Assembly (NCBI RefSeq): GCF_027579695.1
Contig: NC_083577.1
Location: 63,920,741-63,984,740, forward strand
DNA: 64,000 nt
Source: Neoarius graeffei
Lineage: Eukaryota > Chordata > Actinopteri > Siluriformes > Ariidae
Reading direction: 5' to 3'
Shown here in pieces: positions 9,221 through 13,870 of the stretch; positions within the stretch are counted from its first letter, which is position 1; every line of letters starts with the position of its first letter. The translations under genes and the position numbers were made by a program. Under the pieces are notes generated by a model. It was not told the origin of the DNA. It saw nothing but the letters and a program-made list of their open reading frames with translations, and did not search any database.

Positions 9221-9636
9221 GCGGCACGGTGGTGTAGTGGTTAGTGGTTCTCCCCGTGTCCGCGTGGGTTTCCTCCGGGTGCTCCGGTTTCCCCCACAGT
9301 CCAAAGACATGCAGGTTAGGTTAACCGGTGACTCTAAATTGACCATAGGTGTGAATGTGAGTGTGAATGGTTGTCTGTGTCTATGTGTCAGCCCTGTGAT
9401 GACCTGGCAACTTGTCCAGGGTGTACCCCGCCTTTCGCCCATATGTGTCAGCCCTGTGATGACCTGGCAACTTGTCCAGGGTGTACCCTGCCTTTCGCCC
9501 ATATGTGTCAGCCCTGTGATGACCTGGCGACTTGTCCAGGGTGTACCCTGCCTTTCGCCCATAGTCAGCTGGGATAGGCTCCAGCTTGCCTGCGACCCTG
9601 TAGAAGGATAAAGCGGCTAGAGATAATGAGATGAGA
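9221..9636 (+). mobile_element. V-type SINE with internal deletion and 60-bp triplication
   Basis: The head gcggcacggtggtgtagtgg is intact, but most of the tRNA-like body is missing, jumping to ttctccccgtgtccgcgtgg. The 3' part contains a 60-bp unit present three times in a row (about 9383-9562). Confidence 0.85.
9383..9562 (+). repeat. 60-bp tandem repeat, three copies, inside a SINE
   Basis: The unit begins atgtgtcagccctgtgatga and ends cctttcgcccat. The copies differ at only a few positions (ggcaactt or ggcgactt; gtaccccg or gtaccctg). Confidence 0.9.
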
Positions 9637-10394: not shown

Positions 10395-10490
10395 ACTCTA
10401 TATCAGATATATTCCATTCAGCTAGCATGATATCGGATGATGCTAGCTAAATGGAATATATATATGATATACCACGAAAAAGCCATTATT
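10395..10490 (-). mobile_element. Palindromic MITE end (copy 1)
   Basis: The arms atatattccattcagctagc and gctagctaaatggaatatat face each other. They are followed by accacgaaaaagccattatt and a TTA run. The same sequence occurs inverted at 56766-56885. Confidence 0.7.
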
Positions 10491-10508
10491 ATTATTATTA
10501 CTATCCAT

Positions 10509-11141
10509 TAGGGTGCATCAGTTGCCCTCACTTTCATAAAATCTGATGCATTTTTGTTTGGGTGTTCCTTTTCACCAATAAAGACATCCTGTAAAAATTT
10601 TTGACCATATTCAAAAGTCTAATGGTGGCACCATGAGGTTCATTTTTTTTTTTTTTGCCAAAAAACGCTTATTTTATGTTTTCACCTAAGGTTTGAATCA
10701 CAATGTTGGACTCCATTTATTGATTTCTCATGATCCAGAGATCATGTTAAGAACCTTTGCAAGGGATTGAGAAGCATTAATGTGATTCATAATACATCTG
10801 TATTGTTTAAAAGTAGTTGAACAATGATACAATGAACAGCTGAAACTCAAACTGTGCTTGATAATATATTTAGAATATGTACTAAAAATGTGTATCTAAG
10901 ATATTTGGTATACTCTATAAGGTGTCATAATGTTTCATGAAAAGTGATCGAAATTTTGTCATAAAAGTCATAAAATTGCAGCTTTTTCTATAACTTTGAG
11001 CTCCTGATGCCACCATTAAACTTTTTGAATTTTGTCAAAATATTTCACCCAGTGTGTTTTCTTACCAAAAGGAACATAAAAACAAAAATACATCATGATC
11101 AGAGGAACTTTTCATTTTTAGGGGGCAACTGATGCACCCTA
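10509..11141. mobile_element. hAT-type non-autonomous element with 8-bp duplication
   Basis: The terminal inverted repeats are tagggtgcatcagttgcccy. The flanking 8-bp duplication CTATCCAT lies at 10501-10508 and 11142-11149. Further inward the ends also match (atttttgttt / tgttccttttca). There is a second inner inverted pair (ggtggcaccat / atgccaccatt) and no coding frame. The 8-bp duplication and TAGGG ends fit the hAT superfamily. Confidence 0.85.
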
Positions 11142-12689
11142 CTATCCATCCATCCATCCATCCATCCATTATTTGTAGCCGCTCATCCTGTTCTACAGGG
11201 TCGCAGGCAAGCTGGAGACAGGGTACACCCTGGACAAGTCTATTATTATTATTAGTAGTAGTAGTAGTACTTACACACTCACTCTTTTCCAGTTTTTCGA
11301 TTTCCATTGATGCATATTTACTAGAGAAAAACATGTGAAGAATATCTAATGAAGTTTTGGTAGACTTTCAGGTGTTCGATGTGTTGTTCTCTTTCCCACC
11401 GAACAAAGAAAAGCTTCTGCGCACGCGCAGCAGAAAACTTTCTCCTCGGATATTCACATCAGCTCCGATGTATGACGTCTTGACAACCGTGCAATATCCA
11501 TCCATTATCTGTAGCCGCTTACTTTTTCTACAGGGTTGCAGGCAAGCTGGAGCCTGTCCCAGCTGACTATGGGCGAGAGGCAGGGTACAACCTGGACAAA
11601 TTATTATTATTATTCCCATCTCATTATCTCTAGCCGCTTTATCCTTCTACAGGGTCGCAGGCAAGCTGGAACCTATCCCAGCTGACTACGGGCGAAAGGC
11701 GGGGTACACCCTGGACAAGTCGCCAGGTCATCACAGGGCTGACACATAGACACAGACAACCATTCACACTCACATTCACACCTACGGTCAATTTAGAGTC
11801 ACCAGTTAACCTAACCTGCATGTCTTTGGACTGTGAGGGAAACCGGAGCACCCGGAGGAAACCCACGCGGACATGGGGAGAACATGCAAACTCCGCACAG
11901 AAAGGCCCTCGACGGCCACGGGGCTCGAACCCGGACCCTCTTGCTGTGAGGCGACAGCGCTAACCACTACACCACCGTGCCGCCCATTATTATTATTATT
12001 ATATACACACTTCCAGTTTTTCGATTTCCATTGATGTGTTTTTCTCTAGTAAACATGCATGAAGAATATATAATGTTTTGGTAGACTTTCGGGTGTTCAA
12101 TGCGTCTTTCTCTTTCCTGCCGAACAAAAAAAGCTTCTGCACACGCACACACACAGCAGAAAACTCTCTCCTTGGATATTCGCATCAGCTCCAATTTATG
12201 ACATCTTGACAACCATGCAATATCCATCCATCCATTATCTGTAGCCGATTACCTTTTCTACAGGGTCGCAGGCAAGCTGGAGCCTGTCGCAGCTGACTAT
12301 GGGCAAGAGGCAGGGTACAACCTGGACAAGTATTATTATTATTATTATTATATACAACTGTACACACTTCCAGTTTTTCGATTTCCATTGATGTGTTTTT
12401 CTCTAGTAAATATGCGTGAAGAATATCTAATGTTTTGGTAGACTTTCGGGTGTTCAATGCGTCTTTCTCTTTCCCGCCGAACAAAGAAATGCTTCTGCGC
12501 ACGCGCAGCAGAAAACTTTCTCCTTGGATATTCGCATCAGCTCCGATGTGTGACGTCATGTTGTTTTGACAACCGTGCAATATCCATCCATCCGTTATCT
12601 GTAGCCACTTGTTCTACAGGGTTGCAGGCAAGCTGGAGCCTATCCCAGCTGACTATGGGCAAGAGGCAGGGTACACTCTGGACAAGTCT

Positions 12690-12720
<31 letters not shown>

Positions 12721-13090
12721 CACACACTTTTCCAGTTTTTCGATTTCCATTTATATGTTTTTCTGTAGTAAATATGCATGAAGTATATCTAATGAAGTTT
12801 TGGTAGCCTTTCAGGTGTTCAATGCATCTTTCTCTTTCCCGCTGAACAAAGGAACACTTCTGCACATGTGTAGCAGAAAACTTTCTCCTTGGATATTCGT
12901 GTCAGCTCCGATGTATGACGTCCTGTTTTGACAACCGTGCGATATCCATCCATCCATCCATCCATCCATCCATCCATTATCTGTAGCCACTTATCCTGTT
13001 CTACAGAGTCACAGGCAAGCTGGAGCCTATCCCAGCTGACTATGGGCAAGAGGCGGGGTACACCCTGGACAAGTCGCCAAGTCATCGCAG
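11142..13090. repeat. Composite tandem array, period about 355 bp
   Basis: Each unit has three parts: a truncated V-SINE tail in - orientation (tccatccattatctgtagcc to ccctggacaag), a (TTA)n run, and about 225 bp running from cagtttttcgatttccattg to gacaaccgtgcaatatcc. Unit starts lie at 11144, 11495, 12222, 12582 and 12944, the last being partial. A full SINE (11615-11985) interrupts the second unit. No protein is encoded. Confidence 0.85.
11615..11985 (-). mobile_element. V-type SINE inserted in the tandem array
   Basis: This is a full-length - strand copy, from gtgccgcc at its right end to catctcattatctctagccg at its left. It is inserted into a TTA run, which flanks it on both sides. Confidence 0.88.
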
Positions 13091-13590
13091 GGCACCGTGC
13101 AATACCGTAAACCATATTCAATGCTCATTCTCCATTGGGTACTTACTTAATCTTCTTCACCCCGAGTGGGCCATAAGGCCAATAACAAGCGCCTCAACTT
13201 TTGACAGTCTTTAGCAAAATATTGTGCCTTGCTCCATGATGGATTTAACTTTGATAGCTCAGAGGTGATGGTTCTTCTCAAATGGTCTTAGGTCTTCCAG
13301 GCTTCCGCCTTCCAGGGGGTGTCCACATTAGGGCAACTTTGGGGATCTGCTGTTGGTCCATACGTAAGCCATGCCTGAGCCATCTCATGCGTTGGTGTTT
13401 GATTTCATCAACCACGCTCCGACTTCTGGTCTTTTTGTATAGCTCCTGATTCTCCATTGGGTAGAGTGACGTAATTTCATGTAGGATTAGTGATATGCTA
13501 ATATCAATATTGCATGCTATCAAACCAAATGAATCAAACCTGCTAGAAGGGAATAGAATACATGTTTTTATTCCGTCGAAAAAGTGTCCT
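13091..13590 (-). mobile_element. Non-autonomous DNA-element segment continuing the array
   Basis: The sequence from accgtaaaccatattcaatg through agtgatatgctaatatcaat to atgtttttattccgtcg matches the complement of 56045-56210, apart from the LINE insertion at 13142-13448. It is non-coding. Confidence 0.7.
13142..13448 (-). mobile_element. LINE 3' fragment with 15-bp target duplication
   Basis: The - strand encodes VVDEIKHQRMRWLRHGLRMD then PPGRRKPGRPK, a typical C-terminal tail of a non-LTR reverse transcriptase. ATTCTCCATTGGGTA flanks it at 13127-13141 and 13449-13463. It is a 5'-truncated retrotransposon insertion. Confidence 0.85.
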
Positions 13591-13599
13591 GTATGTATA

Positions 13600-13870
13600 A
13601 TAATGTGCATTACATTAATGGCATTTAGCAGACACTTTTATCCAGAGCGACAATACAACATACCCAGAGTAGCCTGGGGAGCATCTGGGGGTTAGGTGCA
13701 CTTGTTTGTTTCATGCGTTGGAGGTCGCTTAAATATTAAATACGCATTTAAAACACATTCAGCCTTGCTCAAGTGCACTTGAGGTATTCCTGCTGGTCCA
13801 AGGAATTGAACCGTTAACTTCTTGGTCCCAAAGCTGCTCCTCTAACCTTTAGGGCCCTATCTACCCCACT
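13600..13870. repeat. Common teleost interspersed repeat
   Basis: The run 'cattaatggcatttagcaga cacttttatccagagcgac' and the later 'cttgctcaagtgcacttgag' belong to a repeat I recognise from many fish genomes. It is interrupted near 13700-13770. Confidence 0.5.

What the first reader, a model, noticed from the sequence alone, without database searches (positions are those of the whole stretch)
11142..13090. Tandem array whose unit is a hybrid of SINE tail, TTA run and DNA element
Four full periods of about 351, 356 (after removing a later SINE), 360 and 362 bp are seen. Each joins a truncated SINE tail, a TTA microsatellite and about 225 bp of another element at the same junctions. A satellite-like array has therefore formed from a composite of mobile elements. 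Units differ by point changes and TTA number, so the array is not an assembly copy of one unit.
Basis: seen in the sequence. Interest (0 to 1): 0.75.

Follow-up and report, generated by a model that had tools for sequence, protein, structure and literature searches.

The report
SINE-seeded tandem array inside a transposon
One copy of a common mobile DNA element caught two pieces of another mobile element (a SINE), and later mispairing between those pieces most likely copied the stretch between them until there were four in a row; this is a clear fossil of an ordinary process, not a new kind of DNA.

Summary
The array is real: five truncated SINE tails (S1-S5) alternate with four TTA runs and four ~215-bp bodies (B1-B4) at 11142-13093. 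It is not a satellite. It lies inside one copy of a dispersed element whose left arm (10401-10500) and right part (13105-13604, itself interrupted) flank it. A two-anchor pattern at that element's B/right-part boundary has 4,084 matches in this 2.34-Gb genome. An exact SINE-TTA-B pattern has 2 matches, both in this array, though it misses the array's other two units.

The junctions fit two same-orientation SINE insertions: S1 in the element's TTA run, S5 at GCAATA|TC with an 11-bp target duplication (one mismatch). Unequal exchange between them then gave S2-S4, which have S5's left and S1's right junction. Other element copies show the parts: a SINE at the same base in 21 of 26 cut loci, SINEs in the TTA region in 4 of 28 copies, and two copies with same-orientation SINEs on both sides.

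Weak points: few diagnostic SNPs, short homology, reciprocal deletion untested. Verdict: new member of a known kind.

The parts
10401..10500 (+). Left part of the host element: remnant of its foldback hairpin and start of its TTA run
   Evidence: BLAST to the hairpin of element copy L033; TTA at 10485-10500 read directly
10509..11141 (.). hAT-like non-autonomous insert, 633 bp, that split the head of the array
   Evidence: 19-bp terminal inverted repeats TAGGGTGCATCAGTTGCCC and exact 8-bp duplication CTATCCAT (10501-10508 and 11142-11149); 93% identical second copy in L005
11142..11241 (-). S1: truncated SINE tail with TTA runs on both sides; internal 27-bp deletion
   Evidence: alignment; TTA 10485-10500 on the left once the hAT-like insert is set aside; ACAAGTC|TATTATT on the right
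11242..11495 (+). T1 + B1: TTA/AGT run and first body; holds a 22-bp microinversion at 11312-11333
11496..11600 (-). S2: inner SINE tail, left junction like S5, right junction like S1
11616..11986 (-). Later full-length SINE inserted into the TTA run T2
   Evidence: full-length matches elsewhere mostly 95-98% identical, among 40 scored of 17,099 candidates; TAATAA duplications
11987..12221 (+). T2 (right half) + B2
12222..12331 (-). S3: inner SINE tail
12332..12581 (+). T3 + B3
12582..12688 (-). S4: inner SINE tail
12689..12944 (+). T4 + B4; ends with the left target duplication ACCGTGCGATA (12934-12944)
12945..13093 (-). S5: outermost SINE tail, 5'-truncated at GCAGGGC, with (ATCC)n tail
13094..13104 (.). 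Right target duplication ACCGTGCAATA of S5
13105..13604 (+). Right part of the host element, ending TGTATGTATAATAAT; interrupted by an insert at 13142-13448 with a 15-bp duplication ATTCTCCATTGGGTA
   Evidence: BLAST to the right part of L033, 88% over 156 bp; duplication

Best explanation
A copy of a high-copy non-autonomous element carried two SINE landing pads, its internal TTA run and the site GCAATA|TC, about 230 bp apart in copies that hold module B alone. Shown: a 5'-truncated SINE tail sits at each of these positions, in the same orientation (S1 and S5), and the inner tails S2-S4 each have the left junction of S5 and the right junction of S1. Inferred: S1 and S5 were separate retrotransposition events, and misaligned exchange between them (unequal crossing over, or template switching between the same homologies) duplicated the S-TTA-B segment. 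Further exchanges raised it to four bodies. Later the units diverged, and a full SINE, a hAT-like element and a third element inserted. The array has no evident function; it is a by-product of recombination between SINE copies.
For: (1) All junctions fit: 4 of 4 body-SINE junctions (B1/S2 to B4/S5) read GCAATATCC (GCGATATCC in B4); 4 of 4 tails S1-S4 run from ACAAGT or ACAAAT into TTA; only S1 has TTA on its left; only S5 runs on to GCAGGGC and is flanked by the 11-bp duplication (1 mismatch). (2) The array sits inside an element copy with both outer parts recognisable. (3) The GCAATA|TC site is hit again and again: of 31 junction matches 4 are the array's own; of the 26 other loci cut out, 21 have a SINE starting there, 1 has a compound insert, 2 have other (ATCC)n-tailed inserts and 2 no insert. 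Seventeen of the 21 align to the window's SINE at 77-96% over 125-373 bp; in 16 of these the right part follows with a target-like duplication of varied length, in L091 a piece of B comes between. (4) Positional control: in 0-30 bp after GTCTTGACAACC, 6 of 7 non-array SINE tails are at that one base (these 6 are among the loci); a comparable window in the right part has 0, with 4,084 and 2,793 intact matches respectively. (5) SINEs occupy the TTA region in 4 of 28 copies chosen only by their body. Of 13 loci printed out of the 22 matches, 11 carry a SINE tail ending at or within a few bases of ACAAGT, and 6 of these 11 have TTA-rich runs on both sides; L010 is in the same element family. (6) L069 and L077 carry same-orientation SINEs on both sides of the module, close to the predicted precursor layout. 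(7) S1-S5 K2P 0.096 lies within the range of three unrelated tails in the window, 0.069-0.109, as separate insertions should.
Against: SNP-level support for hybrids is thin: one right-end state (A in GGCAGGGTAC) is shared by S1-S4 against S5, one left-end state (gccA) by S4 and S5, and most differences are private. The shared homology is only ~85-110 bp, and tails are now 6-14% diverged, short for classical unequal crossing over. The truncation base of the TTA-flanked loci was fixed by my pattern, so its recurrence there is partly selection; the reversed-pattern control of that call gave 5 matches against 22, and two printed loci (L016, L017) have no SINE. The control window gives only about P=0.03 for 0 of 7 by copy number (my arithmetic). 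In L061 the SINE sits about 9 bp from the hotspot, and one of 7 matches is off the site too. In L069 and L077 the left SINE is beside, not inside, the TTA run. The reciprocal deletion product was not tested. In 28 body-selected copies none showed a SINE at the GCAATA site.
Confidence: 0.7

Rival explanations
1. Only one SINE (S5) inserted. A tandem duplication then formed by end joining or slippage with one breakpoint inside the SINE at ACAAGT and the other in the TTA run, and the first body was later deleted, leaving S1 directly against TTA.
For: TTA runs are prone to slippage. L083 in the same element family shows a 363-bp, 2.5-copy tandem unit of SINE head + right part + flank, with no second same-orientation SINE recognised beyond it in the 3-kb locus, so simpler duplications do occur.
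Against: Needs an extra deletion that starts exactly at the SINE tail. SINE tails truncated at or within a few bases of this point and flanked by TTA on both sides exist at other loci (6 of 11).
Confidence: 0.2
2. The composite is a mobile unit or young satellite that spread to other loci.
For: Body-SINE and SINE-TTA junctions each occur at many loci.
Against: The exact SINE-TTA-B pattern has 2 matches, both inside this array; it missed 2 of the array's own 4 units, so the search is not exhaustive. SINEs at the hotspot differ from each other in length and divergence.
Confidence: 0.04
3. Assembly artefact (false expansion).
For: Repeats are a common source of misassembly; no reads were available.
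Against: Bodies differ by K2P 0.063-0.184 with private indels, and a 22-bp microinversion is present in one unit only.
Confidence: 0.02
4. Rolling-circle or template-switch amplification of the S-TTA-B segment rather than crossing over.
For: Would give the same junctions once two SINE copies are present, and tolerates short homology.
Against: No positive evidence; distances between units vary, so at least some steps are probably stepwise.
Confidence: 0.04

Closest known systems
SINE-SINE (for example Alu-Alu) non-allelic recombination giving tandem duplications (recalled; NAHR as an array-expansion route is discussed in PMC9659126, passages seen)
   Same: Two same-orientation SINE copies bound the duplicated segment; inner copies are hybrids by junction
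   Different: Tails are only ~85-110 bp; both lie inside one DNA element; taken to four bodies
Tandem repeats and satellites derived from transposable elements (Tetris foldback, Xmix MITE, Hy/Pol III SINE; listed in the table of PMC9659126, passages seen)
   Same: Mobile-element sequence turned into a tandem array
   Different: Two element classes in one unit; single locus, four bodies, no genome-wide amplification found
SINE insertion hot spots inside another mobile element (Cantrell et al. 2001, Genetics 158:769; title seen only in the reference list of PMC4084570; content recalled)
   Same: Many independent SINEs at one base of a repeated element
   Different: Here a fish-like V-SINE-type element (recalled resemblance) and a non-autonomous host element
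V-SINEs (HE1, DANA, Lun1; seen in a table of PMC3747384)
   Same: RNA-polymerase-III-type B box and a 3' tail of short repeats; recalled resemblance in sequence
   Different: No consensus library was available, so family not established

Membership tests
Satellite DNA | Long tandem arrays, usually at several loci | tested here: not met
   4 bodies, one locus; exact SINE-TTA-B search matched only this array, 2 of 2 matches, missing 2 of its own 4 units; mismatch-tolerant search not done
SINE-SINE NAHR product | Inner SINE copies carry the left junction of one outer copy and the right junction of the other | tested here: met
   3 of 3 inner tails S2-S4
SINE-SINE NAHR product | Internal SNP mosaic of the two outer copies | tested here: inconclusive
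   One informative site at each end; mostly private changes
SINE-SINE NAHR product | Reciprocal deletion product in some other copies | not tested
   25 right-junction loci found but the left sides of the 19 new ones could not be cut out
Retrotransposition of S5 | Target-site duplication and 3' repeat tail | tested here: met
   ACCGTGCGATA/ACCGTGCAATA (1 mismatch) and (ATCC)n
V-SINE | tRNA-derived 5' region | tested here: inconclusive
   B box GGTTCGAGCCC present, strict A-box pattern absent; ARAGORN finds no tRNA
V-SINE | Conserved central domain and LINE-shared 3' tail | not testable with these tools
   No repeat library; two other (ATCC)n-tailed inserts at the same site are only suggestive
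hAT (insert 10509-11141) | 8-bp target duplication and short terminal inverted repeats | tested here: met
hAT (insert 10509-11141) | Transposase or relation to an autonomous hAT | not tested
   Element is 633 bp; no autonomous relative was sought
Host element as TIR transposon | Terminal inverted repeats and fixed-length target duplication | tested here: inconclusive
   Inverted ends ATTATTATACATACA / TGTATGTATAATAAT read in several loci; a foldback arm lies outside them; duplications not established

The most novel reading that the evidence does not exclude
The element family is a repeated seed of composite tandem arrays. Because copies carry two preferred SINE landing pads a few hundred bp apart, SINEs convert dispersed copies into loci primed for unequal exchange, so arrays of this kind would arise many times across the genome and could grow into satellites.
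Probability: 0.2. Interest if true: 0.5.

Novelty: new member of a known kind. Interest (0 to 1): 0.32.

Why it matters
It gives an unusually readable step-by-step record (empty element, single insertions, double insertions, array) of how SINE landing sites inside another mobile element can start a tandem repeat. The thousands of element copies make the rate of array formation countable within one genome.

Tried and rejected
Rejected: a mobile composite or satellite family (within that pattern's limits); an assembly copy of one unit. Considered: that the parent is one large element with the hairpin as its true end, or a smaller inverted-repeat element next to a separate foldback; left open, since flank duplications were not established. 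Led nowhere: ARAGORN on the SINE; promoter scan (a bacterial scan of no bearing here); paper searches for V-SINE hotspots (two papers listed, not opened) and for Alu-Alu recombination with tandem arrays (no paper). Not done: mismatch-tolerant search for the composite unit; unbiased sample anchored on the right part (not answered, not repeated); reciprocal-deletion test.

Full report
Observation. The window is G000:C9:63920741-63984740 of an assembly of 2.34 Gb in 38 contigs. Between 11142 and 13093, five truncated SINE tails (S1-S5, SINE strand minus) alternate with TTA runs (T1-T4) and bodies (B1-B4). Tandem Repeats Finder reports period 357 with score 1380, and ungapped repeat families and BLAST agree. 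A 633-bp hAT-like insert (10509-11141; exact 8-bp duplication CTATCCAT, 19-bp inverted ends) has split the array's head. Setting it aside, S1 lies directly against the TTA run at 10485-10500.

What the body is. The 226-bp body finds 5,311 first-look candidates in the genome. The best 40 were scored and include two of the array's own bodies; the other 38 are 87-91% identical. Reading other copies shows a dispersed element with this order: foldback arm, TTA run, module A (~160 bp, absent in some copies), module B (~216 bp, the array's body, absent or short in some copies), GCAATA|TCGTAAACC, right part, TGTATGTATAATAAT. An exact two-anchor pattern has 4,084 matches around the B/right-part boundary. 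The window array lies inside one such copy, with its left arm at 10401-10500 and its right part at 13105-13141 and 13464-13604. The last two pieces are separated by an insert with a 15-bp duplication.

Junctions. Bodies meet the next tail at GCAATATCC in B1/S2, B2/S3 and B3/S4, and at GCGATATCC in B4/S5. S1-S4 meet TTA at ACAAGT or ACAAAT. S5 alone continues to GCAGGGC and is followed by ACCGTGCAATA, which duplicates ACCGTGCGATA on its left. S1 alone has TTA on its left. S2-S4 therefore combine S5's left junction with S1's right junction, as expected if S1 and S5 were two insertions and exchange between them made the inner tails.

Independent support for the two insertions. A pattern for the body-SINE junction with up to one mismatch has 31 matches: 4 in the array and 27 elsewhere; the reversed-pattern control has 0. 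Of the 26 others that were cut out, 21 have a SINE starting at that base, 1 (L089) a compound insert, 2 (L075, L088) other (ATCC)n-tailed inserts, and 2 (L081, L084) no insert. Seventeen of the 21 align to the window's SINE at 77-96% identity over 125-373 bp; in 16 of these the right part follows with a target-like duplication of varied length, while in L091 a piece of B lies between. In the other four (L070, L076, L078, L079) the SINE is interrupted or the right part was not found within reach. The spread of identities and lengths makes most of them separate events. A control inside one pattern: within 0-30 bp after GTCTTGACAACC, 8 strict SINE-tail matches, 1 in the array, and of the other 7, 6 at the same base (these six are among the loci). 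The same test after CATTGGGTAGAG gives 0, with 2,793 intact matches there against 4,084 at the hot region. By copy number alone that is P about 0.03 (my arithmetic), so the positional clustering is the stronger point. A right-side pattern finds 25 SINE heads abutting the right part; 6 of these are loci already seen, and the left sides of the other 19 were not seen.

The TTA pad. In 28 body-selected copies (L032-L060 without the window's own L040), 4 have a SINE in the TTA region: L035 and L043 in the opposite orientation, L048 (truncated) and L052 in the array's orientation. None of the 28 shows one at GCAATA. The SINE-TTA pattern with up to 2 mismatches has 22 matches, 2 in the array, and its reversed control has 5. 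I printed 13 of the 22; 11 of these carry a SINE tail, 2 (L016, L017) do not, and 6 of the 11 have TTA-rich runs on both sides. One, L010, is in the same element family. The truncation point in this set was fixed by the pattern.

Precursor and uniqueness. L069 and L077 carry same-orientation SINEs on both sides of the module, one at CCAATAT|CTCATC beside the TTA run and one at GCAATAT|CC. The combination SINE-TTA-B was searched exactly and found twice, both in this array (units 3 and 4). The same pattern missed the array's units 1 and 2, which carry a longer run or the later SINE, so a diverged copy elsewhere could escape it. L083 holds an independent 363-bp, 2.5-copy composite repeat of SINE head, right part and flank. 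It shows that such arrays recur, but apparently by another breakpoint pair.

Age and order. K2P between bodies: B1-B3 0.063, B2-B3 0.094, B3-B4 0.114, B1-B4 0.144, B1-B2 0.161, B2-B4 0.184 (microinversion masked). Between tails the range is 0.062 (S2-S3) to 0.137 (S1-S2), with S4-S5 0.063 and S1-S5 0.096; three unrelated tails in the window differ by 0.069-0.109. The array is therefore probably old relative to the full SINE in T2. Its distances do not give a simple order of events.

Against. Sequence mosaicism within the tails is barely informative. Homology of ~85-110 bp is short for crossing over, so template switching between the same two SINEs is a fair variant. The hotspot is not absolute (L061; one of 7). 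The reciprocal deletion product was not tested. Reads were not available.

Literature. From PMC9659126 I saw passages and parts of a table listing satellites derived from mobile elements and discussing NAHR; from PMC3747384, passages and parts of a table of V-SINEs; from PMC4084570, passages on SINE insertion hotspots and a reference to Cantrell et al. 2001, which I did not read. The listings, which cover open-licence papers only, show no paper on this array or on SINE hotspots in this element; the other papers listed were not opened.

Verdict. It is a good teaching fossil, but of a known kind.

Noticed in passing
window 11312-11333: A 22-bp exact microinversion in body B1 relative to the other bodies.
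   Followed up: partly
window 9382-9563: A 60-bp unit repeated three times at 98% inside a SINE tail: a second, internal SINE tandem expansion.
   Followed up: no
L083 373-1284: Independent composite tandem array of 363-bp units (SINE head, right part of the element, flanking DNA), 2.5 copies.
   Followed up: partly
L061 1799-4302 (minus strand): Two element copies about 30 bp apart, head to tail, the second with a B-A-B duplication of internal modules.
   Followed up: partly
L002, L013, L048, L080 and S5: 5'-truncated SINEs that start at about position 247 of the SINE recur in loci not selected for that end, as if reverse transcription stops there or a short source element exists.
   Followed up: no
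L075 and L088, about position 1515 (read on the minus strand): Other (ATCC)n-tailed inserts at the same GCAATA|TC base; possible 3' ends of the LINE that moves this SINE.
   Followed up: no
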